From: Chaetoceros tenuissimus
Taxonomy: Eukaryota; Bacillariophyta; Thalassiosirophyceae; Chaetocerotales; Chaetocerotaceae
Reading direction: 5' to 3'
NCBI GenBank assembly: GCA_021927905.1
Contig: BLLK01000052.1
Coordinates: 250,501 to 314,500, forward strand
Length of the DNA: 64,000 bases
Part shown: one piece after another, positions 20,998 to 53,595 of the stretch
How the letters are laid out: each line of letters begins with the position of its first letter
Position numbering within the stretch: position 1 is the stretch's first letter
Program-made: the position numbers and the translations under genes
Notes under the pieces: generated by a model
Seen by the model: only the letters and a program-made list of their open reading frames with translations
Told to the model about the DNA's origin: nothing
Databases searched by the model: none

Positions 20998-23758
20998 TTA
21001 AAAATAGCACTGGTGAGTGTCACAATACCGCTGTGGTTGGTTTCTCGGTCTTCTTGTAGAACCGCCTCTACATCCATCCGATTTACCTTTCTTACAATTC
21101 TTACATTTCCTTTCTTGACGAACACAAATCTTATCTGGTCCACGTACTGGTAGCACCAAATTTCTTTCATGCCGAGGTGCTTGATATGAAATATGATTCG
21201 CTGCTTGAATCATATTCACTTGATATAAACCAGCAAATTGCGGAAATGCTGGATGAACAAAATTGAGATGATTTACTCTTTTCATTGTCTGTCGCTCTTT
21301 AGGTGCATCCTGTTTCTGGATCGTTCCAAAGTTATCCGTAACAAACTTATCCAGAGTAGATTCTTCGGCATTAACATCCTCTGTATTCATGTCTACATCA
21401 GAAGACGCTTCTGCTGTTGGCTTTTCATATCCTTGTTTTTGATGAGCAGTAAGTATATTAACCGAATGTAAGAGCGTCTCGTCCCTAGCCATCAATCTTG
21501 AAGCTTTTTGCAATGTTTCATAATGTTTACGACGCTTGCGATAGATGCGATTGTACGCTTTAGTCTTGGGAAAGACCTTCACGCCATCGACATGTTTTAA
21601 AATAAGCCGAGTCATTAGCTCATCAACTTTGTCCATGTTCTTATGAATCTTGGTTGCTTCGGTAAACAACTTTTGATACAAGCACTTACATTCGTACTCT
21701 GTCGACCATGGTCTTGGGTGTACTACCATTCCACATGCTTTAGATAAGTATTTTGCCGTAGGTGTCATTTTATCATCTCTAACCTTGACAGTGTCATTTA
21801 TTTCTTTTTCGAGTTCTTTACCAACGAGTGATACGAAACCAAACTTTTCTTCTGTAGGTGCAAAGTCAGAAGCACAAATCCACGTTGGATACAAAAGCTC
21901 ATTATGATTCCGTTCATACACCTTAACATGGGCATCTATCATCCATGTATTATAATGTCCAATCTTAGGAAAGTTCGAAAGATTCTTTTGACATGCACGC
22001 AAATTTGAGCGATGTCAATGTTCTGCTAATATTGCATCAGCTATTTCTGGCCCACATGCCGACGGTCCAAATGCATTATTAATATGTGAATGTGATCCCT
22101 CTAGAGCATTTGTATCTCGTTTACATCTCAATAGCGGAACTTGTAGGAGCAAATCATACTTTGTCCATGTCTGCATCGAAAAATTCATCATCTTCATTTT
22201 GTATGATACTTTCAACGCATTCACTATTATCATTATTATAGTCATTAGCTTTGCCTTGTTCAGTCTCATACAATTTGTCATACTCTTTTTGCTTCTTTCC
22301 TAGCGATGGAAACAGTTCTATCAGCCATCCGCTTTGAAGTGGATTATCTACATATATCCACGACGGTCCACTAAAACCGTACTGATTAAACGTGTCCACC
22401 ATATTTTCAAGTGGTCTTGCGTAATTATCCTTAGCATCACTTGGTGAAGCAAATTGAGCGCGTGCCACACCATATTCATTCTTAATAGTAACAAGACAAT
22501 CTACAAGCTTCTGTCCATTAAAACATCCAAGTCGTTTCATGGCTCTATAAGTGGCATCTGCATAGCCAACTTTTATTCCATGCTTCTTTGTTTCAGCATC
22601 TAAGTGAGAGCGAATCTCATTGTGCATTTCAAGATAAGTACTCCTGAATACTCTTCTACCAGGTACATATCCATCATATTCTGTCTTATCACGAAAATGT
22701 GAAAATTTGCGGAGATGTCTCTCGCTCAAGTCAGCTCTATCATCACGACTATGCTCATGTAAAATTGCTCTTTTGCAATGTTCTACTGCATGCATTTCTT
22801 CAATAATGTCACGGAACCTTGTAAATGAAACATTTGCATCTCGTATTGGTCTCATTAGATCTACAATCTTCATATCAAAAGCGCATCCTTTTGTTAGAAA
22901 TGCTGGGAACGAAAAAGAAAGTCGCCGTGGCAATTGCTTCACGGAGTCTTTATCATAGGACATGAATGTATATGGTTCCCGCTTTTCTTGCATGCACTCA
23001 TGACATTTATATCTACGTCCAGCTATGCAATACCAATCCGCAATGTCAATAACTTTCCTACATGGTGTCTTCTCAAGATCTAGATATCCATGCACACCAA
23101 TACGCTTGTTGCTCTTGCACGTTGGACATATGGGGTCGATTCCATACTGTTCATCTGGGAGCCACATAAGAATGTCTCTATAATATCCAACTAGGTTGAA
23201 TTCAATCCCTAAATTTTGGCATATGTATTCAGCTGTATCTTTACGAATCCAGAAATTATGCATTTTTAAATAGGAAAGTAACCACTTTTCTTCGCTTTTG
23301 ATAGGATCAGCTGTATTGCATTCAACAGCGAGTCTTTCAACTATGCTTTTTGCATATTTATGCATGACACTAATTTTGATATCATCGAAGTAGCTTGAAT
23401 CTTCTTCAAAAGAAGAGCCATCACCATCGTCATCACCATCATCTTGATTTAATTCGTCTTCAGTTCTAGTGCTTTCTTTCACATCGTAGTAGTCATCATT
23501 ATTTGTATGAGTTGGTCTACGGACTTCATAGTTTGCATCACGTCTACGGAACTCATTCCACATTCTCTCTATCATCACTCGAGGTGATTCAATAATATTC
23601 CTAATGGTTCCATGCTGAACAAAATTAGCTAGACCTCTAGCAAGTACTCTTGTCTCAGTCGCTTTCTTATAGGTTTTTGCTGCCTTTGCTGCTGACGTAG
23701 TTTTGCCCTTGTTTGAGTTTAGGGTTTTAGAAACATATTTACGTTTGGATTTTGCCAT
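20998..23758 (-). pseudogene. Broken DDE transposase of the DNA transposon
   Basis: The main frame runs from the ATG at 23758 to a stop at 22154 (534 residues). Downstream sequence continues the same protein in another frame through TNALEGSHSHINNAFG, then past an in-frame TGA (just after ILAEH, before HRSNLRACQ) to 20998. So one frameshift and one nonsense change are visible. Features: a basic N-terminus; an acidic linker; a Cys zinc-binding block (CPTCKSNK, then CHECMQ) at about 212-265; and a likely RNase H-fold core with YADATYRAMKRL (first Asp), IYVDNPLQSGW (second Asp) and the TNALEGSH segment (Glu). The C-terminal end has a Cys-rich knuckle (CVRQERKCKNCKKG). Catalytic assignments are by pattern only. 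Confidence 0.7.
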
Positions 23759-23911
23759 GTTATAGTAAATAAAGACAAGTGAAATGCACTAAAGGTATCA
23801 GGTGTTAATTAGGTTCAGTCAAGTTCAGTGTTCATCTCGTCGTGGCTCAAGGTGCAGCACCTTTTAGTACATACTATATTAGTACCTACACGTTGAATTA
23901 AAATAACACTG

Positions 23912-24010: not shown

Positions 24011-24355
24011 GATTTTTTATTCGTACACTTGTGTTGTAATCATAAATATTTTCCGGTCACGTACGGCAGAATCGGTCTACATTTGGAACGTCGTAGAAAC
24101 TCCGTAAGTACGTATAAATAATACTATAACTGCCAGTAACGTCTACAATCAGAACCCTTTTGCGTTCGCGCCAAAACAAAAAAATGAACACAACATCCGT
24201 TGAACTAAATGAGAAATGAATGTAATTACATCTATCGACTCCAGTTCGGAACTCCTATCTCGATAACTAGAAATATTTCTTAGGACCTTTTTCAGATATA
24301 GATTCCTGAAGATACCAGTAGACACTAGTAAAAAAGGGTCCTAAGAGAAATCGAC
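24011..24355. promoter_or_regulatory. Upstream region with a stem-loop just before the ATG at 24356
   Basis: CTTAGGACCTTTTT (24279-24292) pairs with AAAAAGGGTCCTAAG (24331-24345), with one bulged G, leaving a loop of about 38 bases. The second arm ends ten bases before the start codon, so the stem may fall in the 5' leader. Nothing else is recognised. Confidence 0.5.
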
Positions 24356-25819
24356 ATGGACAGAGTTATAAATGATTTTCGAAAGGTATGCGACACGTTC
24401 GTTACTACCGAGAAGTGGTATTATGCTGTGAAGACAACGGAAATGGAAAAGAATAGTCTTGCTTATGCTATTGGATTGAAAACAGTGGAAGATTTGAATA
24501 TAGTCTTGAATTGTGCAGGTGTATTGAAGAAAATTGGGAAGAAAAAAGACTGTATAGAACATGATCATGAAAAGTTGCAAGAAAAGCTCTACAATACGTC
24601 ATTCAACGAATCCAAATCCCAGTGCATGGATGATGGTGGTAAAAGGCGGCATTTGTTTCTATGCTTAGGTGGTAAAGATAATCCGTTGATCAAAAAGCCT
24701 AGCGACCAGAAGAAAGGAATGAAAGCGCCAAGTGTAAACAAAAAAGCAGAATGGACAAAATGGAGCGATAGACTTAAGAAAAGCATTAGGGAGTATGCTG
24801 CTAATAGCAGCCCTCAAATAGTATCAAGTGCCAGCAGTCCAGTAAAGGTGGCGTCTTTAAAAGGAGTGCAAGAAGAAGACACGGATGTGGAGGATATGGA
24901 TGTGGAGGATGAGATTCAATCTCCTCGGGTGACTCGGTCCTCATTGCGCAAAATAAGTAGTAGTAATAAAGTAAGTCCAGATAAAATGGACTTCACTTTT
25001 ATTACAACTGCACCGCAAGTGCAAGCACACCTACAAAGCCCAAAAAGGAAAGAACTTATGTCACAGCTGCTTAGCAAATATCGCAATGCTGGTATAGCAG
25101 ACGTAGAACTGCAAGAGTTGGATGTTCCACCGGATGTAAAGGCACCAATTGAAATGTTTGGAATCCCTTTCGTGCCCCATCTCATCAGAGTATTATTAAA
25201 GTCATTTGTGAAAACAAGTGAATTGTATCCGAATTTGGATCTATTAAGATTCAATAACCCAAATGATTCGCAACGTGTGCTTATACCATTGACGCAACCA
25301 ATATCAAAAGAAAGTTATCGGAGAGGCGGATCAAAAACTCAGATTTTAAATATGGCTCCCGCCGGCTCTCTATCGGAAGATGACCTTCAAGATATCGAAA
25401 GCACTGTTAGAGACTTCAGTAAAGCATGGAGAGCAGGAAACTTTCCAAGCACTCCAAAATTTCATACTATTGAAAAGCATCTTGTTCGAGACTACCTTCG
25501 GAGATTCCGAGGGTTGAAAGAATATGAGGAATCATTCATGGAGCGGTCGCACCAAATTTTTTCAAACTACGAAAGTAAATCAAGATGTGAAACAAGTTAC
25601 TTTAAAAAAGCAATCCTTCATAACAAATGGGATCGACGTGATGAGCATCCGAAGGTAAAAAAAGCATTGAAAACTTATGAGTTGAAAAGAAAAAAGCGTA
25701 GTGATGATGACCCAAGAACTGAAAAAGCAAAGAGACGAAGAAAAGCTAAAAAAGAGGAAACAATAGAAAAGAGAAGCTTGCTAAAAATTGAGTGTAATAA
25801 TGATTTGGAAGATGAATAA
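24356..25819 (+). CDS. Unassigned basic protein, possibly transposon-derived
   Basis: A 487-residue single-exon protein that I do not recognise. The N-terminal 120 residues are mixed alpha/beta-like, with a CLGGKDNP block. A Ser-rich acidic linker (about 150-205) follows. The second half has FGIPFVPHLIRVLLKSF and KFHTIEKHLVRDYLRRFRG, then YEESFMERSHQ; this K-x-H...H...G...E...E..H spacing resembles C-terminal parts of several transposon-encoded proteins. The last 70 residues are Lys/Arg-rich, a likely nuclear signal. It lies 345 bases outside the nearby transposon end. It may be a remnant or domesticated piece of another element, or an ordinary nuclear protein. Confidence 0.55.
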   Translation: MDRVINDFRKVCDTFVTTEKWYYAVKTTEMEKNSLAYAIGLKTVEDLNIVLNCAGVLKKIGKKKDCIEHDHEKLQEKLYNTSFNESKSQCMDDGGKRRHLFLCLGGKDNPLIKKPSDQKKGMKAPSVNKKAEWTKWSDRLKKSIREYAANSSPQIVSSASSPVKVASLKGVQEEDTDVEDMDVEDEIQSPRVTRSSLRKISSSNKVSPDKMDFTFITTAPQVQAHLQSPKRKELMSQLLSKYRNAGIADVELQELDVPPDVKAPIEMFGIPFVPHLIRVLLKSFVKTSELYPNLDLLRFNNPNDSQRVLIPLTQPISKESYRRGGSKTQILNMAPAGSLSEDDLQDIESTVRDFSKAWRAGNFPSTPKFHTIEKHLVRDYLRRFRGLKEYEESFMERSHQIFSNYESKSRCETSYFKKAILHNKWDRRDEHPKVKKALKTYELKRKKRSDDDPRTEKAKRRRKAKKEETIEKRSLLKIECNNDLEDE

Positions 25820-25963
25820 ACAAAAACATCTTTTTTTTAAAGTTTTGTGAGTATAATTTTTATAGGACATTTGCTATACTTATTTAGCTATTTGACAGAT
25901 TTTGAGGGATTTAGCTTAGTTAGAGGTTCCAACGGTCTGCCGTACGTGGGTGTTACTCTAACA

Positions 25964-27859
25964 ATGGAAGTACAATTATCAGCAACTCTCAGGGTATCAC
26001 TTCCCGAATCTATCGATGTATTCATTAGTGCTCGGTTTGATGGGGGTGCAAAAGAAAAGAAGGCAAGAGAGTTGTACGAAGGCCTCAAGAGAAGAAATAA
26101 GCTTAAACCATTCATGGTTGATGCTGTAACGGGTGATGACTTTGGTAACTGGACGGATAGAGCACTTCACCGCGCGCATGAAAGCAATGGTTACTGTCTG
26201 TTTCGAGGATTATGGTCAAAGGACTGGAAATCCATATTGTACCTTCACAGAGGTAAGGTCTGCCAGGAATCAAGGCAAGCCTATCATTCCAGTACGTATA
26301 TGCCAAGAATGGCCACCGAAACCAAAAGACTATGATGGTAAAGATCTTGGAGCTGCCCAGAATAGCTCAGTCTTTGATCTTGGTGTAGGATATGGCTCTG
26401 ATTGGTCAAGTAAGCAATGGAATGCAAACGACGAGTGTGCAAAGGAAGTTGAACAAGCATTCTTAAGAAAGTTTGGTAAAACAAAATGTATTCAACCTCA
26501 AGAGATCCAGTCTGCTAAAGCTGCGAACGTTGATTTTGATTTATCTGCAAGTGAAATTCAGACGCTACTTGTTGCAAAGAAGAGCAATAGACCAATGAGT
26601 AAAAAGAAGAAATTGATATTAGTCTGCATTACTTTTCTTGTGCTTATCGGAATAGCTATAGGAGTACCATTAGGACTCCTCCTTAAGGTACGGGAACAGT
26701 CGTCATTCATGAACAGAATTATTATGTATCTCTTACATACAATCTCTTGTTAGAAGAGGAAGAATATGTCATATTACTTAAACGGAGCTGGTAATGATGA
26801 TTTATTTGGATCTGCGATTGCAATGTCTTCTAATGGTGGCACTGTTGTGATAGGATCACCAGAGACATATGATGAAGAAGGAAAAGGCTACGTAAAGGTT
26901 TATTCCTACGATGTTGACGGCTGGGAGCTCAAAGGATTTAAATTTGAAGGTGATCTTGCTGGTGATGAGTTTGGAAAGTCAGTTTCTATATCGTACAATG
27001 GAAATATTATCGCTATAGGGTCTCCAAGGTATGGTAGAGATTTTGGTGGAAGGGTATATGTATACGTGTTTGATAAATTGATGCCTCATGGAAGCTCATG
27101 GGCGATCCAATAAATGGTGGAGGTGCAAATGAGTACTTTGGAACAATAGTTGATTTATCATCAGATGGTATGACGATCGCTGTGGGAGCACCAGGAAATA
27201 GAGCTGACTCAGGCTATGTTGAAATTTACACATTTGATGGGGTTTCTTCCTCTTGGAAATTGCAAGGGGAAAAGATTTCGGGCGATTCATTAGACTACTT
27301 CGGGAAAACTTTATCACTTCGAAAAAATGGGAAGAAAATATTTATTGGAAGTGGAAACAAAGTAGTGGAAATGTACAAGTTGAAAGATGAAGGTTATTGG
27401 AATAGATGGCAAGATAAAGATATCGAATGTACTTCAGTACCAACTAGTCTTTCCACTACCAACAATGTTACTGCTGCTAGCATCATAGAAGGTGAGGTAA
27501 CGTTATTTTATACTGAAGAAGGAAAACGAGAAAGCATTCGTTTTCCTTCTTTGAACACCTTTGGGTTTTTTGTTTCATTATCTTCAAATGGTGCAACTCT
27601 TGCAGTAGGAGTTCCTGTAAATGATACTAATCTCATGCCTGGACATGTGCAAGTGTACAATTACAATGGATCTACTTGGAACCTGAAAGGAAATGCAATC
27701 CAAGGCAAAACACTAGGTGATTCTTTTGGTTATTCCATATCATTATCATCCACTGGTGATAGAGTCGCCATTGGAGCACCAACTAATAGTGTAGCTGGTA
27801 CTAATTCAGGAGAGGTTCGAATTTACTCTTATGATGGTTCAAAATGGGAACTTATGTAA
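25964..27859 (+). pseudogene. TIR - transmembrane - beta-propeller protein (apparently frameshifted)
   Basis: The ATG at 25964 opens a TIR domain: VFISARFDGG (beta-A and box 1), GLKRRNKLKPFMVD, ALHRAH, then in a second frame FEDYGQRTGNPYCTFTEV and KPIIPVRIC. The Glu in CTFTEV occupies the position of the catalytic Glu of NAD-cleaving TIRs. After a charged stretch comes a helix KKKLILVCITFLVLIGIAIG, so the TIR should be cytosolic. A 66-bp GT-AG intron (26688-26753) then leads to FG-GAP-like propeller blades of the form DxFGxSVSxSxxGxxxxIGSP and GYVxIYTFDG..WKLxG. Two frame changes (near 26200 and 27075) interrupt it, so it is a pseudogene or contains assembly indels. Two related genes follow without TIR. 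Confidence 0.7.
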
Positions 27860-28305
27860 AAGCAGCCCGCAAGTTCTCCATTGCATACATATAATATATG
27901 ATACATGCTTCATAAATAATTTATGGTATAGTTCCTTTGTTTTTATTCTTCTTTCAACAAACTGCAGTTTCATAATGAGCGACGTTCATCATAATTCGTA
28001 ACTGCAATAAAGGCGTGCTTTCCAAATACATAGTGCGTAAATAAAGATACAATCATTGTCGATAATATTTTCATTTTGTGAGACGTCTCTAGCTCAGCCG
28101 TGTCAATAGATTTTTAGCCTATCAATATAATACAAAGTTAGCCGAGAGGGTTCTCATTATTTCTTAAAGAAGGCTTCTTCACTCTTCTTGCTTGTGCTTT
28201 TACGATCTTTTACGATCACTACTCCAACTATATTCTGGAGTTAATAAATCTAGTTCGAAGGAATATAGCAAGAAAACAATTACACATAGGAGAGTTTAAT
28301 GAAAA
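27860..28305. promoter_or_regulatory. Upstream region of second propeller gene, duplicated before the third
   Basis: The block AGCCGTGTCAATAGATTTTT through GTTAGCCGAGAGG (28095-28150) recurs before the third gene (31102-31150), followed in both by a TTCTCAT box and a GAAGGCTTCTTCA segment. Confidence 0.6.
28147..28160 (+). promoter_or_regulatory. TTCTCAT box
   Basis: AGGGTTCTCATTAT, 159 bases before the ATG at 28306. Confidence 0.5.
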
Positions 28306-30568
28306 ATGAAGGACAATGGGAAAGATAAGGAGGAGGTCCAAGATTCATTGCCGATAGAAGGAACACAAGAAATCGAATCAAATGATTATCTTCTATCACC
28401 GAAGAAATCTGAACCCTCACTACTGACATCAATAGAAACAGAAAATAATGATCATTTAGCACAATCAAGCCATGATGGCTACTCTGCTCCAGAAAATGTT
28501 AATCAAACAAGTGATGAACACATTTCTCCTACTGGTAACGAGGAAGAAGATCATGATAAATATGAATCATCTTTCTCCAATCCACAACATTCAGTTCTTC
28601 AGACAAATTGCATCGAAGAAAATGAAAGAAGATCTCTCTTTGAGGCTATTGGTCATAATGAGCATGTCGTGGAAGACGAAGAAGACGAAGAAGATGAGAG
28701 TAGGTCTACTTTTCTTTCGTGTCTGCAAAGGCATAAAGTTACTCTTGGACTACTTTGCTTCGTTTTACTCATTGGCGTCTTAATTGGTTATGCGGCTGGT
28801 AAAGTTTCTAGAAATCTAAACCGAGATATATTAGGTAGTAATTCTCCATCTTACATGGTAAGAGCTTTGTAGGCTAGTTATGAAAATAGCCTTTCATTTC
28901 ATTCTACTCCTCTCATAGTACATATTTTTCTACATCAGCCAATCACAAGACCTACTCAATCTCTTAGTAGTCTTCCTTCTATTGGTATTTCGGAGAGTCC
29001 ATCAGAGAAAACAAGCACAAGTCCGTCATTTGGTCCTTCCTCAGCGCCATCTTATAGTAGCATGAGCCCATCGCTTACTCAATCCAACTTACCAACATAT
29101 CATAGTTCTTTTCAGCCTTCCATCAACACGTCATCTAATCCTTCTTCGATGCCAACATCTAGTAGCAGTAACAATCCTTCTTCTGTACCTTCCTATATTA
29201 GTGTCAAAGCTTCCTCAATGCCTTCTATTGAGCCATCTCAAACATCATTTCCAAGTTTTTCTGAAAGGCCATCATCTATGGTTAGTCATCTTCACGTTCT
29301 ATTGTTATATCTATTTTGGGAATTTCAATTTACCAGCCTTATTATAAATTCTTTGACAGCCGACTTGGAGACCACCAAACTTGATTGGAGAAATAATTTC
29401 TCAAACCAAGTGGAACGACTTTGCAGGAACTTCTATTTCACTCTCCGCTGACGGTAAAACGCTTGCCGTAGGCGCACATGGACAATATCAATCCTTTGGA
29501 AAAGTGTATGTTTACTTTTATAATGGATTAACCTGGCAGCCAAAAGGAAATAACATCATTGGATATAAAGAAATCAATGACAATTTTGGAGATTCTGTTT
29601 CTATATCTGCTGTTGGCAATACTCTTGCAGTTTCGGCACCTCATAGATATTGGGCAGCTCCTGGGTATGTTTTCGTCTATATCTTTGATGACTTTGATTG
29701 GAAGCTTAGTCATACTTCACATGGATCGAAGACTACTGGGATAAGTTCATATGGATTTTCAGTATTGTTATCTAATGATGGTAATGTTCTTGCTGTAGCG
29801 GAGCCTTATACTCCCGCATATGAAGGAACGATCGGTTTAATTCATGTATATCATTACAACAAGTTCCAATGGGAGCAGAAGGGAGATACCATTTATAAAT
29901 TTACTCGTGATGATATGAGGACAGATTCCAAACAATCTATTTCTTTATCACCAGACGGAAACACTATAGCTGTCGGATCTCCTTATAACAATGGTGATGT
30001 ACCTGAAAGTGGTCAAGTTCATGTTTTTTATTTTGATGGTTCTCAATGGCAGTACAAAGGTAATAGTATAAATGGTGAGCAGGAAAGAGAGCTTTTCGGT
30101 TTGTCTGTTTCACTTTCCTTTGATGGTAATGTGGTTGCGATTGGTGCACAAGGCTTTGATTTTCATGAAGGTAGAACATACAGCAATGGAAGAGCCCGAG
30201 TTTATGAATTTGATGGACTGGCATGGAATCCGAAAGGGAAAGAGAATCATAAGATTGACGGGATCAACTCGCACTGGAAGCAGAACGAGATATATTGGTT
30301 TGGTAAGCATGTTTTATTATCATCTGATGGTAACACTGTTGCTACCCATTCCCATTTCAAAGATGGTAACACTGTTACTACCCATTCCAATTTCAAAGTC
30401 CACGTATTCTCTTACAATTTTTCTACGTCTAAATGGGACCTTGTAGAATTATTTGATCGAGATACTTGGATTGAATCGTTTTCTTTATCTTCCGATGGCA
30501 AGATTCTTGCAGTCGGCGAAAATACTCAAGGAATTGGAAAAGCAAAAGTTTATCAACTTCAGCTTTAG
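28306..30568 (+). CDS. Type II membrane protein with extracellular beta-propeller (copy 2)
   Basis: Three exons: 28306-28857, 28939-29280 and 29360-30568, with GT-AG introns of 81 and 79 bp, give about 700 residues. Residues 1-142 are acidic and Ser-rich with no known domain. A helix at about 145-164 (TLGLLCFVLLIGVLIGYAAG) lacks a preceding signal peptide, so the C-terminal side should face outward. Exon 2 encodes a Ser/Pro/Thr-rich stalk. Exon 3 encodes six or seven FG-GAP-like blades (NDFAGTSISLSADGKTLAVG, DNFGDSVSISAVGNTLAVS and so on). Such propellers mediate extracellular binding in other families. Introns delimit tail-helix, stalk and propeller as modules. Ligand and function are unknown. 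Confidence 0.8.
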
Positions 30569-30885: not shown

Positions 30886-31304
30886 TTCATAACTAAAATC
30901 AATAATTCATAATAAGTATCACGAAAACAAGCTATTTTACTCCTGCTTGCCAACAAGGTGAGAGAAAGAGATGGAGGCGAAAAAGATGTTGAAGCCTTAA
31001 AGCAGTAAAATTCTCAATGTTTTCCTATTCGTGGCTTCATTAATAAATTCTCGATTCTTTTGTCCCAATTTCATTTTCATTTTAGTTCTATTTCTCTTTT
31101 AGCCGTGTCAATAGATTTTTAGCCTATCAGTATACAAAGTTAGCCGAGAGGCTTCTCATTTTTTCTTTGGAAAGAAGGCTTCTTCATTCCTCTTCACACA
31201 AACTCTTCTACGATCACTACAACGCAATTCTTGGGATCTTTTTGGAGTTATGAATCGATTTTGAAGGAATGAAAAGAAGAGAAAGATAACCCATAGGATA
31301 TTCA
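30886..31304. promoter_or_regulatory. Upstream region of third propeller gene
   Basis: The second half (31102-31300) is a diverged copy of 28095-28305. The TTCTCAT box is at 31149-31161 as GAGGCTTCTCATT, about 150 bases before the ATG. Confidence 0.55.
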
Positions 31305-33404
31305 ATGAAAATGAAGGAAAATAGGAATGATAAGGAGGAGGTCCAAGATTCGTTACCGATAGAAGGAACACAAGAAATCGAATCAAATGATTATCTTCTA
31401 TCACCGAAGAAATCTGAACCCTCACTACTGACATCAATAGAAACAGAAAATAATGATCATTTAGCACAATCAAGCCATGATGGCTACTCTGCTCCAGAAA
31501 ATGTTAATAAAACAAGTGATAAACACATTTCTCCTACCGGTAACGAGGAAAAAGATCATTATAAATATGAATCATCTTTCTCCAATCCGCAACATTCCAT
31601 TCTTCAAACAAATTGCATCGAAGAAAATGAAAGAAGATCTCTCTTTGAGGCTGCTGGTCAAAATGAGAATGTCGAGGAAGACGATGAGAGTAGGTCCACT
31701 TTCCTTTCATGTTTGCGAAGGCATAAAGTTACTCTTGGACTACTTTGTTTCGTTTTACTCATAGGTGTCTCAATTGGCATTACGGTTGGACAAGTTTCTA
31801 GAAATCTAAATCGAGATATAGTGGAGAACAATTCTCCATCTTCCATGGTAAGAGCTTTGTAGAATGAAAATAACTTTTCACTTGCTTCATTCTACTCTTC
31901 TCATAATACAAATTTTAAATATCAGCCAAGTGCAAGACCTTCTCAATCTCTTAGTACTCTACCTTCTATTGGTCTTTCGCAGAGTCCATCAAAAATAACA
32001 AGTTCAACTCCGTCACTCGGTTCTTCCTCTGTACCATCTCATAGTAGCATGAGGCCATCGACAATTTCATCCAACTTACCAACGTACCATAGTTCATATC
32101 AGCCTTCGATCTTTACTTCGTCTGATCCATCTTTTATTCAGTAGTGAAAACCCGTCATCTGGTCCTTCTCAAATCCCATCATTTAGTCCATCATCAATGG
32201 TGAGAAATATAATCCATGTTCTTTTTTTTTCTAACTTTATCTAACTCGAATGAAATTTCGGAACTAGCCATCTTCGATCGTAATTGGAAGCATCGCCAGC
32301 CCAAACTCTTTGGATCGTTTTGCATACTCTACAGCACTTTCTGCTGATGGTAAAACTCTTGCTGTAGGTGCACCAGAAACAAGTGATGGGTATTTGGGAC
32401 CTGGAAACGTTTATGTATACTATTATGATGGGTTTATATGGATGCCAAAAGGACAAACTCTTGGTGGAGAGAGACTTGAACAATTTGGTTCTTCTGTTTC
32501 ATTATCTGGTGACGGAAATACACTTGCAGTAGGGGCGCCAAATTGTTGTTCTAGGTCTGGGTATATTAATGTGTACTCTTTCGACGAGCCTATTTGGAAG
32601 CTGAGACACAGTGTAAACGAAAAGAACAGCAATAGATATGGATATCCTGTATTATTATCGTTCGATGGAAATGTTTTGGCTGTAGGGCAACTAGAATATC
32701 AAGAATACCAGGCTACTCTCGGGCAAGTTCATGCGTATTCTTACTCAAATGATTCCTATTTGACAAATAAAGGATGGGCAATTACATGTCCAACTCGTGA
32801 TGACTTGCCCACATATAACAAAGACAATTTTTCCTTATCTCCTGATGGGAATACTATAGCTATTGGATCCAATCGAAATGATGGGACTGTACCTGTATCT
32901 GGACAAGTCCACATATATTATTTTAATGGCTATCAGTGGGAGTTGAAAGGAAATATAGTAAATGGTCAACAAAGATTTGAAATGTTCGGATATTCCGTTT
33001 CACTTTCATTTGATGGAAATGTAGTTGCAATTGGAGCACCTGAACATAGATGTGACGCAGGTAATTCTGGACAGGTTCAAATTTACGAATACAACGGGCA
33101 AGAATGGCAGTTGAAAGGTAATACTATACAAGGTCATACTATACAAGGTCGTAATCTTCGGCAAATTGGTAAATTCGTTTCCTTGTCAACTGATGGGAAC
33201 ATAGTTGCTTTCAGTTCTCACATGTATCCACCTCAAATCCATATCTACACTTATCATCAAGCTTCTTGGCAACTTACGGACCTTGTCGATTGTGAGGAGA
33301 CAGTTACATCAGTTTCTTTATCATCTGATTTCATGACTCTTGCAGTTGGTTATGAAAAAGAAGATATCGGAAGAGTGAAAGTATATCAAGTTGATTTGAA
33401 GTAG
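31305..33404 (+). CDS. Type II membrane protein with extracellular beta-propeller (copy 3)
   Basis: Close paralogue of 28306-30568 with the same plan: acidic tail, helix TLGLLCFVLLIGVSIGITVG, Ser/Pro stalk and six to seven FG-GAP-like blades (DRFAYSTALSADGKTLAVG, EQFGSSVSLSGDGNTLAVG). Exon 1 is 31305-31847, the stalk exon 31926-32199 and the propeller exon 32268-33404. The stalk exon is one base out of phase. Either it carries an indel near 32143, or a further 58-bp intron (GTACCATAG to TTTTATTCAG) is removed, which restores the frame as TSENPSSGPSQ. The cytosolic tail is almost identical to copy 2, while the propeller is much more divergent. Confidence 0.7.
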
Positions 33405-34635: not shown

Positions 34636-35016
34636 TGTTAGTATATGGTAAGGTAATTAAATAATATAATGCAGTGCTATTAGAACAGAGTTGCTCTTTC
34701 GTTCACTCCAACTAGTTCTTACGATGAATCGTGGTGCACGATGTTGCTCGTTTAGTTGATGCAAACCGACTGTTTGATGTGAGTCTTGTTTTTGACCGTT
34801 TTTGAATAGTTCGCGGTTCATTGGGGGTGGAGGGGTGGACTCGGATACAATAAATAAATTATGTTTGTGGTACTTACTGGGCAACAATGAATGGCAGCGT
34901 TGAGGTAGATCTTTTTTTGCACTATCATGTATCATGTGATATCAGAAGAAGATTACACCCAAAAACAATAAGAACAATCCAAAAAGTATATCCATAGAAC
35001 AAACTTACGAAGCAGA
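34636..35016. promoter_or_regulatory. Divergent promoter between membrane protein and LNR gene
   Basis: About 380 bases. Most of it recurs, in pieces, at 38758-39045. Contains GTGCACGATGTTGCTCGTTT and a G-rich GGGGGTGGAGGGGTGG tract (34823-34838). Confidence 0.5.
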
Positions 35017-35677
35017 ATGGCAACCTCTTATCCTAATTGTACAGTTGAGAATCAATATTATATTGGAGATGGACAATGTCACGGTGGAGAATACAACACG
35101 GAAGAATGCGGTTTTGATGGGGGAGCAAGACTGTACTATTGCAGAATATCCTGATTGCAGAGTTGATTCTCCTCATTACATTGGAGATGGTGAATGTGAG
35201 GGTGGAGCATACAACACGGAAGAATGCAGTTTCGACGGAGGAGATTGTTTAGAGTTTAATACAAAGTATCCTGATTGTAAAGTTGATTATCCAATATATA
35301 TTGGAGATGGCTTGTGTTTTGATAATATTGAAAGCTACAACACTGAAGAATGTGGTTTCGACTGTGGTGACTGTGATGAGTATAATTTATACAAATTTTG
35401 GATTGAAAAGTATCCAGATTGTAGAGTAGATGACTATTCCAAGCTTGGAGATGTTGAATGCCATAAAAATTACAACATGAAAGCATGTGGGTGGGATGGT
35501 GGAGACTGTCAATCTCCAAAGAAATATGGAATCATTTTTGGTGCCACTGCTGCCACTGCCATTGGTCTTATCATTGGGTATTTGTTATTCAGGACTTTCT
35601 ATCTTGTACCTCGTCGACAAAGGCAAAGCAACATTGAAGACGAAAAAGTTAATGATGTCACAGAGGAGCAGCTTTAG
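35017..35677 (+). pseudogene. LNR-TM protein, four Lin-12/Notch repeats, one frameshift
   Basis: The ATG at 35017 has the same context (AGCAGAATGGCA) as the intact paralogue at 36782. Repeat 1 (YPNCTVENQYYIGDGQC..ECGFDGG) is in the ATG frame. An apparent insertion of four bases at about 35129 (GGGGGAGCAAGACTG) moves the rest to another frame, where three more repeats follow (YPDCRVDSPHYIGDGEC, YPDCKVDYPIYIGDGLC, YPDCRVDDYSKLGDVEC). Then come a helix (GIIFGATAATAIGLIIGYLLF) and a short charged tail. LNR modules are Ca-binding disulfide domains known from Notch. Either a recent pseudogene or an assembly indel. Confidence 0.7.
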
Positions 35678-36184
35678 AGCGCGCGGCTTGATTGAAACTT
35701 TTTTATATGAATTTTAATACGCACGTCTAAGGGCAGGCACTGCTTGACTAGTCAATTTATGTTTCTGCACAATACTTATTTGTAAAATAATGGTTCCAAG
35801 AAGAATATTATCTTTATGAGCGAGGAGTTGTTGAATTCTCTAATTTATATCTTATTCCTCAATTGGAGAGGGTACACATAGAAACCCACAGAAGATTTTG
35901 GGAATATTCTCCCTTTTGGTTTAATAATAGAGAAAATGAAGAGGCATTTCATGAATTCAACACATTCACAAGATCATCTCGAAACAATTTTTATGATTGA
36001 AACTGTTACGAAAAATAACGGCAAATAATACGTCAAACAACGGAGACTATCATTACGAGCATAGCGCAGATTTATAATCACCTAAACATTACAATACTTT
36101 GCTTCGCATTTCTATAGATGAATTTTTGTAAGGTGCCTTTTATATTTTAGGAGCGAGTATAATACTTCTACATAAATCTCCATA

Positions 36185-36262
36185 CGAAGAGTCTCTACCA
36201 TAATATCATGCTTCTTTTGTTGCAGAATGGATAGCTGCGCTTCTAAATCTGCTTTCTTGTGA
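36185..36262 (-). pseudogene. Relic of the linker of a TM-RING gene
   Basis: On the minus strand the sequence resembles the coding linker of the LNR-TM-RING gene (43921-44000), with the pattern LEVQxSILQQKKHxIMVETL, but contains stops. It is a short displaced fragment. Confidence 0.45.
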
Positions 36263-36635
36263 ACAGCTTGTTTTCATGTTTTCACAAAGATGAATTTTCT
36301 TTTTTTTTTGAATTATAAGGCGTCCATAGTACCTCTTATTATAACACAATGAGCTTAAGAAACCTTTTGTATGAGTACGTAGCATTGTAATTTTCTTTTT
36401 CCAGTGCCATGATGAATTTTATTTCCAAGAAAGGGATGAGCTTTCATGATATTTTCGTAATAAAGAGCAGCCAAGAAGAAATTTAGAAAAATATTATAAA
36501 ACAGCAAAAACAAGCTAGCTCGTATATTGTCAGAAATATTCTGTCTTGGAAAAGTAATCTTTTTTGAATTTGTGATACAGGTTGAGAGGTATGTCATAAA
36601 TAACCTCTTTTCTAACCGTCACGATTGAATGGAAG

Positions 36636-36650
36636 TAGGCTTCTCATTAC
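36636..36650 (+). promoter_or_regulatory. TTCTCAT box
   Basis: TAGGCTTCTCATTAC, about 145 bases before the ATG at 36782, preceded at 36613 by AACCGTCACGA. Confidence 0.5.
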
Positions 36651-36781
36651 AATGCAAGCTTTCTTGACCGTCATTTCGAAGACTTTAGACATTTTTCGTT
36701 TCCCACCTTTGCAGGAAGTTGAGGTGGATCTTTTTCTATGCGACGTGTATCAGGTCATAGAACAAAACATTACAAAGCAGA

Positions 36782-37807
36782 ATGGCATCCATTTATCCAA
36801 ATTGCACAGCTTATTATCCATCTCTAATTGGAGATGACTATTGTGATGGAGGAGCATATAATACTAAAGAATGCGGGTGGGATGGTGGAGATTGTCTAGA
36901 GTTCAACCCAAAGTATCCCAATTGCAAAATTGAGCCCGTAGAATATATTGGGGATGGTGTGTGTGATGGTTGGGAGTACAACACAGAAGAATGCGAATGG
37001 GATGGTGGCGATTGTATTGATTTCAATACAAAGTATCCCAACTGCACTGTTGATGAAACTTGGGCAATTGGAAATGGCTATTGTGATGGTGGAAAATACA
37101 ACACAAAAGAATGCGGTTGGGACGGAGGTGACTGTTTAGAGGTTAATGAAAACTATCCCGATTGTAGTGTTGATTCTCCTGATCGTATTGGAGATGGCTG
37201 GTGTGATCTTGAATACAGTTGGGAAGAGTGTGGTTGGGACGGAGGAGATTGCTTCATCCCAGAATATCCCGATTGTAGAGTTGATTATCCTCAATGGATT
37301 GCAGATGATGAGTGTAAGGGAGGAGCATACAACACGGAAGCATGTGGTTGGGACGGAGGAGACTGCATTGAGTTCAATATCAAGTATCCAAATTGCAAAG
37401 TTGATTATCCAATATACATTGGAGATGGCAGGTGTAATAGTGACGAATACAATATTGAAGAATGCGGGTTCGATGGAGGTGATTGTATTGAGTATAATTT
37501 CTACAAATTCTGGACTGATAAGTATCCAGATTGTAGAGTAGATGACTATTCCAAGCTTGGAGATGGTAAATGCTACAAAAAATATAGCACAAAAGCATGT
37601 GGGTGGGATGGTGGAGACTGCCAATCTCCACAGAAATATGGAATCATTTTTGGTGCCACTGCCATGGGTCTCATCATTGGATATTTGTTATTCAGAACCT
37701 TCTATCTGGTACCTCGCCGACAAAGGCAAAGCATCGAAAAGGGTATACAAGAAAACCCCGTACAAGAAAACCCCGAAAATGTTAATGTCTCAGAGGAGCA
37801 GCCATAG
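36782..37807 (+). CDS. Membrane protein with seven Lin-12/Notch repeats
   Basis: A 341-residue single-exon protein. Seven repeats of about 40 residues follow the pattern YPxCxVDxxxxIGDGxCDGGxYNTEECGWDGGDC, with the Cys, Asp and Trp/Phe positions of LNR modules. They begin almost at residue 1 (MASIYPNCT). The helix GIIFGATAMGLIIGYLLFRTF (about 287-307) and a basic PRRQRQ then acidic tail close the protein. No N-terminal signal peptide is visible, which is odd for disulfide modules: the protein would have to insert with the N-terminus outside without a cleaved signal, or an upstream exon is missed. The two neighbouring relatives share this. Function unknown; a calcium-dependent surface role is plausible. 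Confidence 0.8.
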   Translation: MASIYPNCTAYYPSLIGDDYCDGGAYNTKECGWDGGDCLEFNPKYPNCKIEPVEYIGDGVCDGWEYNTEECEWDGGDCIDFNTKYPNCTVDETWAIGNGYCDGGKYNTKECGWDGGDCLEVNENYPDCSVDSPDRIGDGWCDLEYSWEECGWDGGDCFIPEYPDCRVDYPQWIADDECKGGAYNTEACGWDGGDCIEFNIKYPNCKVDYPIYIGDGRCNSDEYNIEECGFDGGDCIEYNFYKFWTDKYPDCRVDDYSKLGDGKCYKKYSTKACGWDGGDCQSPQKYGIIFGATAMGLIIGYLLFRTFYLVPRRQRQSIEKGIQENPVQENPENVNVSEEQP

Positions 37808-39371
37808 AGCGGCTTGATTGAAACTTTTTTATATGAATTGTAATACACACGTCTACTAAGGAAAGGCAGTGCTCGACTTCTCCATTTATGTCTCTGCACA
37901 ATACTTCTTTGTAAAATAATGGTCCCAAGAAGATTATTATTTCTATAAGTAGTGGTTGTTGATTTCTCTTTTCCATAATTGATATCTTTAGATATACAAA
38001 TATTGTATAATATTTTTTCTAAACGTAACAAATCAAAATTAGAATTGTCATGGTAGTTCCTACATTTTCAAAGTGAGCATTGTATGATTTTGAACACGGA
38101 AAATGAAAAAAAGAAGTTCATGGCCGGTGCTTTTTCTTCAAGCATGAATTCTGAACTAATACGTACACAGTGTGATCCATGCCGCTTTCCAGCCATTCTT
38201 TTTACACATTTTAACTGGGAAAAATCTTTTTCAAAAGCTACCATACTATTGCTTTGCATTTTCTATTTTGTTTGTTTTCCTACTGGGTTCTACGCACTAT
38301 CAATGCAGCTGTCAAGAAAACCCGTCCATCACGAATCATAGGAGGTAGACTTCTCATCATTCTAAGTTTGGACATTTCCCTGTAAGAGAATCATCAATTC
38401 CTTCACAAAGTAGTCTTATTTCTCATGTCTAGCTAAGGATTACTAGCTTTCTTGACCGCCATTTGGAAGACTTTAGACATTCCTTCTTCTCTGTAGTGAT
38501 GCTTCCCACCACCCTTCATGCAGGAATTTGCAACCTGCTGCTGCTTTCACAAAGCAACTTGCTCCTGCTTTTACTTTATCACATACCTTCCTCCTTCTCT
38601 ACTTTTACCTCGACACCTTGGAACAACTGCTCCTTCGGAAAAAAGTATATAGAACAAACCTTACACATAATCATGAATATTGGTATGCTCACATATGTTT
38701 TCCTAGTGGCAAATTGGCAGCAAACAACTGGCTCTTTTGTACACCACCCTAACTATCCAAGAAGAATGCACCCGAACAAAACTAGGAACAATCCAAAAAG
38801 TACAGCCATGGAACAAAACTTTCAAAGCAGAATGGTTGATACGAGAGCTGTCAGTAGGAGAATTATTATCGTCTTCATTGTTAGTATTGAATATGGTAAT
38901 GTAATGCAGTGCTATTAGAGTCCAGTAGCTCTTTAGTTCACTCCAACTAGTTCTTGCCAGTGAATCGTGGTGCACGATGTTGCTCGTTTTGAGTTGATGC
39001 AAACCGACTGTTTGATGTGAGTCTTGTTTTTGACCGTTTTTTTGAAAATGTTCGCGGTTCTTTAGGGGGGTAAAAGGGGGTTGGAAAGGAAACTTTGAAT
39101 AAATTATGAATAACCTCTATTCAGCAAACAAAAGCACGTCGACGTCGTCGATGTATTCATATGTAGTCGTAGCTTCTTTTTTGCTTCACGTTCTTTCTTG
39201 ATTTGCGGATTGACATTGTCTGCAATCAATTTTCTAATCATCAACGCTTCCACCATCCAGTTTTCTTGCTTCTTGATGCTTGAGGTTAAACATTGGAAAA
39301 AGAAGCTAGTACTCCTAGCTACTGCCTCGTGGTTCTACTAGGCTACCTGGTTCTTAGAAAACACTAACATC
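37808..39371. other. Intergenic with mosaic duplicated pieces
   Basis: About 1.56 kb. It contains a GCTTTCTTGACCGCCATTT block (38446) also present before the seven-LNR gene (36657), a TTCTCAT-like box (TAGACTTCTCATCAT, 38346), and the mosaic at 38758-39045. A 151-codon frame at 38463-38918 crosses these non-coding duplicates and is judged spurious. Confidence 0.5.
38758..39045. repeat. Mosaic copy of the 34.6-35.0 kb region
   Basis: 38758-38835 matches the leader of the LNR gene (34951-35020) up to its AGCAGAATGG start. It then joins directly to 38848-39045, which matches 34610-34810, the first codons and promoter of the minus-strand membrane protein. Both pieces keep plus-strand orientation but their order is swapped. 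Confidence 0.65.
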
Positions 39372-42914: not shown

Positions 42915-44244
42915 ATGCCTTCATGGAGAGATTTTCCTGATTGTACATCTCGTGCTCACATTTCATTGGAGATGGAAAATGTCATCACTGGTATTATGTC
43001 AATACTGAAGAATGCGGATAGGTTGGTGGAGACTGTATTTTGTATAATCAAGGTTGTAGGGTTTATGAACCACAGAAGCTCCTCGGGGATGGTTATTGTG
43101 ACTATTATTATGAAAGATATAATTGGGACGGTAGAGATTGTGTTAGGTGGAACACTCAGTTCAAAGATAAATATCCACAGAAATGTAATATTCATATTTC
43201 TCTTGGAGATGGGAGATGGTAAATGTGATGAAACGAACAATAAGAAAGAATGTAGTTGGGACGATGGTGACTGCATTCAATTCCTCAATAAAAAGTATCC
43301 GAAATACAAATTTGTGAATCATGAAATGGTTGGGGATGGGCAATATGACAAGGGACACTACAATCAAAAGAACTGTGGATGGGACGGATTGTAAAGTTGA
43401 TGACTTTGAAAAGATCAGGGATGGAAGATGTAATGCAGATCTCATTGGCTATAATTCAGAAGTGTGTGGATGGGATGATGGAGACTGTCTAAGTAAATTG
43501 AGTCTTGGAGCAAGGTTTGCCCTCTTTGGATTTTTCGTTGTTATATACCTTGGGTTTTATATGTATTGCTCCAATGAGCAGTCTCCGATCAGTCAATACT
43601 TTCGTGATCGTCAAGAAAGACAAGAGGGGCTTCGTAATCATCGGATGCGCGAACTCGAGCGAAGAAGAAGGGCAATGATATTTCCAGTGCCGTCAGCTCT
43701 TGTAGAAGAGCCAAGAATGGATAGACATACACTGGTGGTCCTGACAAGTATAATTCATGAGAAAGTTGTTTCTTCCAAGAAGTCAAGTGACAATGATGAT
43801 GATTACAAGATCACTCTACTTCCACATGAGACGATCCTATCGGAACGATCAACAACAATCACAAATTGTTATGAGATACAATTACTTGTTGAGAAAGAGA
43901 ACAATCATGAGGTACTAGAGGACGACAGAGAAGAAGACTTAGAAGTGCAGCAATCTATACTGCAACAAAAGAAGCACAATATCGTGGTAGAAACTCTCTG
44001 TAGTATACGAGCTATGAATGATAACTGCATTCAAAGCTCTGTTGATAGCAATGTCGACGATCTATACTATAGTCCAAAAGTATGTCCAATTTGTTGCGAA
44101 GAATATGAAAAAGATGATGATATTGCATGGTCCAAGAATGAAGAATGTGTACATGCTTTTCGTACGGATTGTATTGTGCCTTGGTTAATGGAGCATAGTG
44201 ATTGTCCAATGTGTCGGAATGATTATCTTTGTTTGAAAAAATAA
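42915..44244 (+). pseudogene. LNR - TM - RING fusion protein, broken in the LNR part
   Basis: Starting from the ATG at 42915, four to five Lin-12/Notch repeats are readable only by changing frame (FPDCTSRAH; IGDGKCHHWYY..; LLGDGYCDYYYERYNWDG; CDETNNKKECSWDDGDC; CGWDDGDC). I count about three frameshifts and one in-frame TAG. From about 43390 the frame is open: a last repeat, a helix (FALFGFFVVIYLGFYMYC), a basic juxtamembrane segment, a linker with ILQQKKHNIVVETL, and a RING finger (CPICCEEYEKDD..CVHAFRTDC..CPMCR). One zinc-ligand His of the RING-H2 pattern is Arg here (HAFR). The architecture implies a surface-receptor E3 ligase; this copy is probably dead or badly assembled. Confidence 0.7.
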
Positions 44245-44526
44245 TAAAAATTTATAAAATGACTTCAGCTTGTCTGGGGGAGAGGGGGATAGGGGGTTTA
44301 ATAGGATACTTTTGATAATTAGTTGTACTGAACAGAACAACTCAGAAAACGAGTGACGTAGAGGACAGTTTGCCCGTAGTTTCTATTTCCGTTCTCCTTG
44401 GGCTGGCACCTATGAGCCCAACAATAAAAACAATTCATTCGTGATGATGATGTAAAGAACCACATAATTAAGAACAAGTGTTCAAGCACTTCTAGTTTAC
44501 TTTCAAAAACAAAGCCTTTATCCATC

Positions 44527-44835
44527 ATGGGGGAATCTCCTGAGAAGACATTAGCAATTACTTTTGTGGTATTTGCATTCGTCTATACTACAATTTACTT
44601 TGCATGTCATTATTACTGCTGCTCCGATCGTGATCGGTATGGGCTACACAGGATGCCAGATAGTATAGAGCGGTATCAGCAAAGATTGGATGCCCTGGAA
44701 CAACAGGCACAGAGAGGAGAAACAGAGGACGCAAACGTTAGCAGAAGCTCCAATGCATCCATCAATGGACGAGCAAGAGGAAGCACAAATCGTACAACAG
44801 ACACTCATCTTGGTACTTACACATCTTCTGCATAA
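44527..44835 (+). CDS. Small single-helix membrane protein (unit copy 1)
   Basis: A 102-residue protein: helix at about 8-30 (TLAITFVVFAFVYTTIYFAC), then Cys pairs, a predicted coiled segment (SIERYQQRLDALEQQAQ) and a Ser/Thr-rich end (GTYTSSA). The plan resembles the N-terminal half of the TM-RING proteins. Downstream non-coding sequence still carries their linker (KHNIIVES) and a RING stub, so it is likely a TM-RING gene truncated by an early stop. Copies: 52741-52430 (minus), 55276-55587, 58379-58690. Retention of an open frame in all four suggests that the short form may be expressed. Confidence 0.6.
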   Translation: MGESPEKTLAITFVVFAFVYTTIYFACHYYCCSDRDRYGLHRMPDSIERYQQRLDALEQQAQRGETEDANVSRSSNASINGRARGSTNRTTDTHLGTYTSSA

Positions 44836-46029
44836 GGGAGTTGTCTTGTCAGGAAAAATTTCTATCGAGATATTTGATACAGTATCTTGCCACATCATGA
44901 TGCTATCTTATTTCAAAGATCAATGAGGCTAACTTATCTCGAAACCAAATATGAAAAAGAATTAAGAATCCACAAGGAATCTCAAGGACGAGGCAGACTT
45001 TTCTTGAGCTTTCGAAATTCTATTCTGCTAAAACAAAAACATAATATCATCGTCGAGTCCTCTTTCTGCCATCTTAATAAACAGTTTCCCTTGTTTGAAT
45101 GAAGTTGTCAATGAGAATGAGGATTTTCATAACTCAAATCCTAATCTCTAACGTGCTAGTCACAAGGTGTTAACTAAAATGCTCACTGATAAATATTTCA
45201 ATTGGGAGATTACAGAGAAATACTCGAGGATGAGGAAGAACAATGCTAAAAACGAGGAAGAACAAAGGAAAGACTTCAAAGCGAGACAATCCTGCAAAAG
45301 AAGCATAGCATCATCGTTGTGCCCTACCGTAATATATGAGCTATGAATAGCAAATGCCACCTGAACTCTGTTGAAGGCAGTTGCGATGATCTTCATGATC
45401 CCTCAGGCTGCCCAATTTGTTTTGATGGGTACACCATAGGTAATATCATTGCGTAGACCAAGAATGAAGAGTATGCATATTCTTTTTATCTTCTTTGTTG
45501 ATTAGGCATTCTGATTGACCTAGTTCTCGACATGGATATGTTTGCTTTAGTAGAAGAGGAAATGAGCTGTTGCAGATTTCTTTTGTCGGTAGTGAGTAGT
45601 GTTGCCTTGTTTGATGTAAAAGAAACTGATGAAAATATCCTCAAATGAGAACTAGCTAACGGAGCATTTTACGAGATCTAATTTGTTTCTTATTCAGTAG
45701 CTATCATTCACCATCAAAAATGAATAACTCATGCTCTATAGGAGTAGTGTGGCGTTGATGTAAAAGAAACTGATGAAAATATCAATCCTAAAAAGTATAT
45801 TACTCATGATAATCAAATTTTACTAATTTAATTTGTGAGGAAAAGTTAGGGTTCTCATTCAACTAGGGAGGTGTCAGTGCCATAGGAATTCTTTGCATTC
45901 ATCCGCAGTTCCGCAAAAGTCTATCTAGTGTTACTCGTAATCTATTCTTGAAAAGGAGGTAGAGGTGCTTATATATAGAACTAGATGTAGGGATTGTTCT
46001 ATAACAAATTTATCTCCATTGAACAAAGC
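44836..46029 (+). pseudogene. Decayed RING linker and RING half, then promoter of TM-RING copy 1
   Basis: Frames resembling the RING linker appear twice (around 45040 and 45290), and a half RING (GCPICFDGYTIGNIIA then a stop) at about 45406-45453. From about 45500 on it is non-coding, with repeated AAAGAAACTGATGAAAATAT blocks (45627, 45762) and the TTCTCAT box at 45847. Confidence 0.55.
45847..45860 (+). promoter_or_regulatory. TTCTCAT box
   Basis: TAGGGTTCTCATTC, 183 bases before the ATG at 46030. Confidence 0.5.
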
Positions 46030-46650: not shown

Positions 46651-46791
46651 AGAACAAAAGCGCAAGCTATTCTCATACGTCCATTGAAACTTGAACTAGA
46701 TAAATTAATATACAATTCATGATGCCCATTATTCAATCAATACAATTTATTCCTTACTACCTGAAAGATCCATCTATGCGGCAAGTGCTAT

Positions 46792-49692: not shown

Positions 49693-49799
49693 TTGTAATT
49701 GTACTTGTAGTATATATCTCACTATTTTATTTATATAGATGTGGGTCAACTATTAATTGAAAACATTTGCAGATTCAAATGAATACAAATGAATTGTGA

Positions 49800-53592: not shown

Positions 53593-53595
53593 TTT

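What the first reader, a model, noticed from the sequence alone, without database searches (positions are those of the whole stretch)
25964..27859. TIR domain linked by one membrane helix to an extracellular beta-propeller
A TIR domain with the conserved Glu (CTFTEV) precedes a single helix and FG-GAP-like blades. The predicted topology puts the TIR inside and the propeller outside, the layout of a surface receptor with an NADase- or scaffold-type signalling domain. I know of no described receptor with this order in algae. Two frame changes mean this copy may be dead, but related intact genes in other strains or species would define a new receptor class.
Basis: partly seen in the sequence, partly recalled or inferred. 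Interest (0 to 1): 0.75.

Follow-up and report, generated by a model that had tools for sequence, protein, structure and literature searches.

The report
Broken algal TIR receptor-like gene
An alga-like genome, probably a diatom's, carries a gene that joins an immune-type TIR signalling domain to a propeller-shaped domain across a single membrane helix; the copy here has two reading-frame breaks, so it may be dead or wrongly assembled, but it suggests a receptor design like animal Toll receptors turned the other way round.

Summary
Read across the first frame break, the N-terminal region passes the Pfam TIR_2 cut-off narrowly (29.5 against 28 bits; neither half alone does). hhalign to 9 TIRs gives 89% (best of 300 shuffles 35%), and the catalytic-type Glu aligns with the Glu of the 7 TIRs in the main alignment. 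One hydrophobic helix follows, then a phase-0 GT-AG intron candidate that removes the one in-frame stop before the propeller, then seven FG-GAP_2-type blades, five clear and two weak. Two neighbouring genes share helix, phase-0 introns and propeller but have an acidic tail instead of the TIR. So this looks like a membrane-propeller unit with an exchanged cytoplasmic module. No relative was found, but no eukaryotic collection was available, so a 'new receptor class' is untested. Best reading: type II single-pass receptor-like protein, TIR inside, propeller outside, signalling when clustered; broken as assembled. New variant of a known kind, with reversed polarity relative to Toll/IL-1 receptors.

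The parts
25964..26188 (+). first half of the TIR domain (start codon, first beta strand IDVFISARF, first helix, BB-loop-like segment), frame 2
   Evidence: codon-usage frame; TIR match only together with the second half
26140..26260 (+). first frame break, inside the TIR domain (approximate)
   Evidence: best codon-usage frame changes between the 120-base windows starting at 26080 and 26140, with small margins; open frames overlap at 26130-26335; the TIR_2 match spans it
26187..26318 (+). second half of the TIR domain, with Glu96 of the read-through (codon 26250-26252), frame 0
26319..26612 (+). rest of the cytoplasmic region and basic juxtamembrane stretch (AKKSNRPMSKKKK)
   Evidence: sequence
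26613..26684 (+). single transmembrane helix (LILVCITFLVLIGIAIGVPLGLLL)
   Evidence: hydropathy; tblastn similarity to the helix of paralogue 2 at 31716-31790, 36% over 25 residues, E 0.007
26688..26753 (+). candidate phase-0 GT-AG intron, 66 bases, removing the one in-frame stop between helix and propeller
   Evidence: other splice pairs also keep the frame open; the paralogues' introns are phase 0 too
26754..27076 (+). FG-GAP_2 propeller, blade 1 and most of blade 2, frame 0
   Evidence: Pfam FG-GAP_2 35.9 bits for window 26754-27110
27040..27113 (+). second frame break, in blade 2 (approximate)
   Evidence: codon-usage frame change; open frames overlap at 27077-27113
27077..27859 (+). FG-GAP_2 propeller, end of blade 2 to blade 7, and stop codon, frame 2
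   Evidence: Pfam FG-GAP_2 49.7 bits; repeats
28303..30568 (+). paralogue 1: acidic cytoplasmic tail, helix, intron 28858-28938, Ser/Pro/Thr stalk, intron 29281-29359, seven-repeat propeller
31290..33401 (+). paralogue 2: same layout, introns 31848-31925 and 32200-32267; stalk has a frame break of its own near 32090-32130

Best explanation
A member of a local family of single-pass (type II, N inside) membrane proteins with an FG-GAP_2 seven-blade propeller outside, in which the cytoplasmic module is a TIR domain instead of the acidic tail of its two neighbours. Most likely mechanism: a ligand or surface contact bound by the propeller clusters the protein; the TIR domains are brought together and signal inside, as an NAD+-cleaving enzyme (the Glu is kept) or as a scaffold. 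Shown here: the domains, their order, the helix, the shared helix-propeller unit and the two frame breaks. Inferred: topology, splicing, oligomer signalling, NAD+ cleavage and a role in recognition or defence. This copy is broken as assembled, so it makes the full protein only if the breaks are assembly errors.
For: TIR_2 over cut-off across the break; hhalign 89%, best of 300 shuffles 35%; own TIR profile 9.6 bits against at most 7.2 in 5000 shuffles; Glu96 the only invariant column among 8 sequences; weak model with the order beta19-22, alpha29-45, alpha60-70, beta74-80, alpha91-102, beta107-112, 30 of the 50 PDB matches shown being by title entries of TIR proteins. Helix. FG-GAP_2 over cut-off in both propeller pieces, seven repeats. 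Phase-0 introns behind the helix also in paralogues 1 and 2, helices there too. Helix of paralogue 2 similar, E 0.007. Coding signal runs through the gene, changing frame twice.
Against: The TIR score is only 1.5 bits over the cut-off and needs a read-through. NCBIfam, PADLOC and PHROGs give no TIR match, nor does a single-sequence PDB search. The own-profile margin over shuffles is modest. In another alignment the Glu column is not invariant, as one bacterial TIR (L005) has Leu there. The single-sequence fold is worthless (pLDDT 39.8); the second has pLDDT 53.8, used an alignment of TIRs (which leans to the TIR fold), and its matches include non-TIR folds, one at rank 2; only 1 match reaches E 0.001. 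Lysines follow the helix too. No intact relative was seen. Two frame breaks.
Confidence: 0.6

Rival explanations
1. Real pseudogene: the architecture once worked, but this copy is decaying in a duplicating gene cluster.
For: Two breaks in 1.9 kb. Paralogue 2 has a break in its stalk and a gene near 43390 with Notch-like repeats (by eye) has one, while other genes show long unbroken ORFs, up to 701 aa, so a uniformly high error rate is unlikely.
Against: Apart from the breaks, the exon pieces hold no premature stop, and the predicted frame has the best codon usage in nearly every window. The comparison ORFs were picked because they are long and open.
Confidence: 0.45
2. The breaks are assembly errors (or a consensus of mixed copies or haplotypes) and the gene is intact in the organism.
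For: Only two small breaks and no further decay; breaks also seen in other repeated-family genes of the window, as expected if similar copies were mixed in assembly.
Against: Other long genes of the window are not broken.
Confidence: 0.45
3. Two adjoining genes: a TIR-helix protein ending at the stop after 26750, and a separate propeller gene starting at an ATG just downstream.
For: The open frame 26130-26753 ends at a stop there, and the next frame (26754-27113) reads KRKNM..., so an ATG follows closely.
Against: A 66-base GT-AG phase-0 intron removes the stop; in both paralogues a helix exon and a propeller exon can be joined through phase-0 introns, though splicing there is predicted too; only about a dozen bases would separate the genes.
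Confidence: 0.12
4. The N-terminal domain is another Rossmann/flavodoxin-like domain, not a TIR.
For: Borderline TIR_2 score; non-TIR folds (natriuretic peptide receptor, lumazine synthase) among the Foldseek matches.
Against: hhalign 89% to TIRs with a clear gap to shuffles, GD motif and Glu in the expected places; no other Pfam family below E 0.1 on the read-through.
Confidence: 0.1
5. Same protein but in an internal membrane, with the propeller in the lumen of a vacuole or silica-deposition vesicle: a structural or trafficking protein, not a surface receptor.
For: Topology inferred from sequence is the same for surface and lumen; targeting was not tested.
Against: A TIR domain usually goes with signalling (general knowledge).
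Confidence: 0.2

Closest known systems
Toll-like and IL-1 receptors of animals (PMC7075850, passages seen)
   Same: single-span membrane protein with an extracellular sensor and a cytosolic TIR
   Different: those have extracellular LRR or Ig sensors, N-terminal, and a cytosolic TIR, C-terminal; here the TIR is N-terminal and the sensor is a C-terminal propeller (type II, reversed order)
Neighbouring FG-GAP_2 membrane genes of this window (28303-30568, 31290-33401)
   Same: helix, phase-0 introns, seven-repeat propeller
   Different: acidic cytoplasmic tail in place of the TIR, and a Ser/Pro/Thr stalk which the TIR gene lacks
SARM1 and bacterial TIR NADases
   Same: TIR-type sequence with the Glu in the third-helix position
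   Different: SARM1 is a soluble ARM-SAM-TIR protein (recalled); NAD+ cleavage not tested here; the Trp that precedes the Glu in many TIRs (recalled) is not clearly kept
Plant and bacterial TIR-NBD-LRR/WD40/TPR proteins; oomycete ankyrin-TIR proteins (PMC9153377, passages seen)
   Same: TIR joined to a repeat domain; N-terminal TIR in the plant and bacterial class; TIRs reported in oomycetes, also stramenopiles
   Different: NBD present in the first group; no membrane helix between TIR and repeats is mentioned in the passages seen
Integrin-type FG-GAP propellers (PMC3192720, passages seen)
   Different: no DxDxDG loops in the propellers of the three genes; FG-GAP_2 rather than FG-GAP model; membrane helix on the N-terminal side

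Membership tests
TIR domain (Pfam TIR_2, PF13676) | score over the curated cut-off | tested here: met
   29.5 against 28 bits, on the read-through only; halves alone fail
TIR domain (Pfam TIR_2, PF13676) | flavodoxin-like alternating beta-alpha fold | tested here: inconclusive
   pLDDT 53.8 model has the order but its alignment leans to it; single-sequence model failed
NAD+-cleaving TIR (SARM1-like) | catalytic Glu in the third helix | tested here: met
   E96 aligns with Glu in 7 of 7 TIRs of one alignment and 3 of 4 of another
NAD+-cleaving TIR (SARM1-like) | NAD+ cleavage | not testable with these tools
   needs an enzyme assay
Toll/IL-1 receptor family | single membrane helix between sensor and TIR | tested here: met
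   hydropathy; orientation only inferred
Toll/IL-1 receptor family | N-terminal LRR or Ig ectodomain and C-terminal TIR | tested here: not met
   TIR N-terminal, FG-GAP_2 propeller C-terminal
FG-GAP_2 repeat (PF14312) | score over cut-off | tested here: met
   35.9 and 49.7 against 23 bits
integrin-type beta-propeller | DxDxDG-like calcium loops in several blades | tested here: not met
   no match to D.D.[DN]G in the propeller pieces of the three genes
integrin-type beta-propeller | seven blades | tested here: met
   seven repeats, two of them weak

The most novel reading that the evidence does not exclude
Diatoms (or their kin) have a class of type II surface receptors built on a common helix plus FG-GAP_2 propeller unit, bounded by phase-0 introns, whose cytoplasmic module is exchangeable (acidic tail or TIR); the TIR form is an independently evolved, reversed-polarity counterpart of Toll-like receptors that signals by NAD+ cleavage.
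Probability: 0.35. Interest if true: 0.75.

Novelty: new variant of a known kind. Interest (0 to 1): 0.5.

Why it matters
In the passages seen here, TIR receptors with an extracellular sensor are described from animals (PMC7075850), and the 2026 atlas of eukaryotic TIRs says that six wholly eukaryotic TIR clades are uncharacterised (PMC13142454, section 5). A TIR receptor with a propeller sensor in a diatom would give a concrete candidate for how phytoplankton perceive bacteria, viruses or partners, and would suggest that receptor-TIR coupling arose more than once. If only this broken copy exists, it is a relic and matters little.

Tried and rejected
Own genome: none held. Relatives of the TIR and propeller parts in viral contigs: 23 and 7 pattern matches, no relative; phages none; plasmids 5 records at E 6-8, taken as noise. 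Genome contigs: 100 pattern matches, one locus, L001, matching only the lysine-rich helix stretch (residues 198-236), rejected as a likely composition match. TIRs from the phylum of L001's genome (12 of 286 genomes with a match, 4 over the cut-off) served only as seeds and for comparison. A fold from one sequence was useless. A PDB search with the profile of alignment A2 lists TIR-type chains (94 matches, 60 shown), but 7 of its 8 rows are ordinary TIRs, so this says nothing about the query. Integrin-type calcium propeller: rejected. Intron as cause of the first frame break: by eye no GT-AG pair of plausible length between 26170 and 26230; not computed. The automatic intron search for paralogue 1 used wrong right-hand anchors and gave nothing usable; its introns were set by eye and checked for frame, those of paralogue 2. 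Literature (open-access PMC library; listings seen): 'TIR domain'+'diatom' 11 papers, none about diatom TIRs by title and start of abstract; with FG-GAP 0; with Bacillariophyta 0; 'FG-GAP'+'diatom' 4; others (20 of 141 listed; 2; 15 of 100; 12 of 1747; 15 of 1766) listed nothing on such a protein. This is not proof of absence.

Rows dropped: among 9488 ORFs of at least 80 aa from 281 loci, 12 TIRs were found. Eight lie in loci usable for folding; L064 was left out because its printed TIR region equals that of L028, leaving 7.

Full report
What the window is. 64 kb, about 38% GC, no tRNA found, no held genome. Predicted short introns, a protein-kinase gene, Notch-repeat proteins, RING proteins and FG-GAP_2 membrane proteins point to a eukaryote. 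'Alga' and 'diatom' are inference from recalled gene content; no call names the species.

The TIR. ORFs 25841-26335 (frame 2) and 26130-26753 (frame 0) each hold part of a TIR. Alone they do not pass: the first has no TIR match at E<=1, the second TIR_2 13.4 bits, E 0.11. Read through, TIR_2 gives 29.5 bits against a cut-off of 28, E 1.2e-6, residues 29-118. NCBIfam, PADLOC and PHROGs do not see a TIR, nor does phmmer against PDB sequences. To test the borderline score I made a TIR profile from sequences fetched here (12 TIRs among 9488 ORFs of 281 loci). On the whole read-through it gives 11.3 bits against at most 6.9 for 5000 shuffles (3448 reported), but its best single domain scores only 6.9. 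On the TIR part alone (residues 1-125) it gives 9.6 bits (best domain 9.4) against at most 7.2 (best domain 6.8) for 5000 shuffles, 3698 reported. hhalign against 9 TIRs gives probability 89%, E 2.3e-6, score 41.5, residues 18-116; of 300 shuffles the best has 35% and 28.9, the next 3% and 20.5. In an alignment with 7 TIRs of viral contigs the only invariant column is Glu96 (codon 26250-26252), the catalytic position of NAD+-cleaving TIRs (role recalled). In another alignment 3 of 4 bacterial TIRs have the Glu and one has Leu. A fold with the 8-row alignment has mean pLDDT 53.8, pTM 0.47 and the expected alternating order, Glu96 lying in the helix 91-102. Of the 50 PDB matches shown, 30 are by title entries of TIR proteins (SPARTA, SARM1, RPS4, MyD88, RUN1 and others); the rest include natriuretic peptide receptor (rank 2) and lumazine synthase. 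TM-scores on the query are 0.32-0.46 and one match reaches E 0.001. Because the alignment was of TIRs this is weak support. Without an alignment the fold failed.

Helix and intron. Residues 217-240 are strongly hydrophobic; the best 19-residue mean is 2.86, against at most 1.08 for windows starting outside residues 200-245 and 1.27 in the second propeller piece. Behind the helix lies an in-frame stop; a GT-AG intron of 66 bases, 26688-26753, phase 0, removes it and joins helix to propeller. Other splice pairs also keep the frame open, so the exact ends are inferred. In paralogue 1 the introns 28858-28938 and 29281-29359 and in paralogue 2 the introns 31848-31925 and 32200-32267 are phase 0 and lie between helix, stalk and propeller; all were set by eye and none is backed by transcripts.

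Propeller. FG-GAP_2 scores 35.9 and 49.7 bits in the two pieces (cut-off 23). A blade profile from the two paralogues finds seven repeats in each of them and seven places in the TIR gene, blades 4 and 5 of the latter weak (3.7 and -2.4 bits). No DxDxDG loop occurs in the pieces tested.

Neighbours. Genes 28303-30568 and 31290-33401 have an acidic N-terminal tail, one helix (best means 2.54 and 2.49), a Ser/Pro/Thr stalk and a seven-repeat propeller. The helix of the TIR gene resembles that of paralogue 2 (36% over 25 residues, E 0.007). The TIR gene thus looks like the same membrane-propeller unit with another cytoplasmic module and no stalk. Exon exchange at phase-0 introns is an inference.

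Frame breaks. A codon-usage score trained on 11 other ORFs (5374 codons) prefers frame 2, then 0, then 2, changing between the 120-base windows starting at 26080 and 26140 and those starting at 26980 and 27040. Margins are near zero around the first break (26140-26200) and the helix (26560-26620); the windows from 27820 run past the gene's end. Paralogue 2 has a break in its stalk, and a gene near 43390 with Notch-like repeats (by eye) has one, while other genes have unbroken ORFs up to 701 aa. This fits either decay in gene families or mixing of similar copies in assembly; I cannot decide.

Relatives and literature. No convincing relative in viral contigs, phages, plasmids or genome contigs; none of these is a eukaryotic collection. 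The atlas of eukaryotic TIRs (PMC13142454, section 5 and passages) names green algae and dinoflagellates among holders of SARM1-like TIRs, says TIR_2 hits TIRs of nearly every subclade, mentions a possible membrane helix in an amoeba TIR protein (TirC), and has no occurrence of 'diatom', 'stramenopil' or 'propeller' in its main text. PMC7075850, PMC9153377, PMC8613185 and PMC3192720 were seen as passages only. The searches named in Tried and rejected listed no such receptor.

Mechanism. Most likely: N inside, propeller outside, clustering by ligand, TIR-TIR contact, then NAD+ cleavage or scaffolding. N-inside rests on the absence of a signal-like N-terminus, the basic stretch before the helix (AKKSNRPMSKKKK) and the stalk-bearing relatives; the lysines after the helix argue against. 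All of the signalling step is inference.

Verdict. Observation confirmed; the receptor layout is plausible and partly supported; the claim of a class is untested. Interest 0.5.

Noticed in passing
43918-62281: A block with RING and protein-kinase genes (EF-hand-like tail by eye) is repeated several times in direct and inverted orientation at 88-98% identity, with about 400-base tandem units at 48115-49575.
   Followed up: partly
34940-37969: Genes with Notch-type LNR repeats (PF00066), one with six repeats passing the threshold, another with a membrane helix by eye.
   Followed up: no
43380-43400: A gene with Notch-like repeats (by eye) followed by a RING finger (43318-44241) has a frame break inside a repeat.
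   Followed up: partly
32090-32130: The stalk of FG-GAP_2 paralogue 2 has a frame break, unlike that of paralogue 1.
   Followed up: partly
22157-23788: Minus-strand ORF with DUF6729 (67.1 bits), possibly a mobile-element relic (a guess), beside ORF 21001-22014 without a family match.
   Followed up: no
24332-25816: An open 495-aa ORF just upstream of the TIR gene without any Pfam match at E<=1.
   Followed up: no
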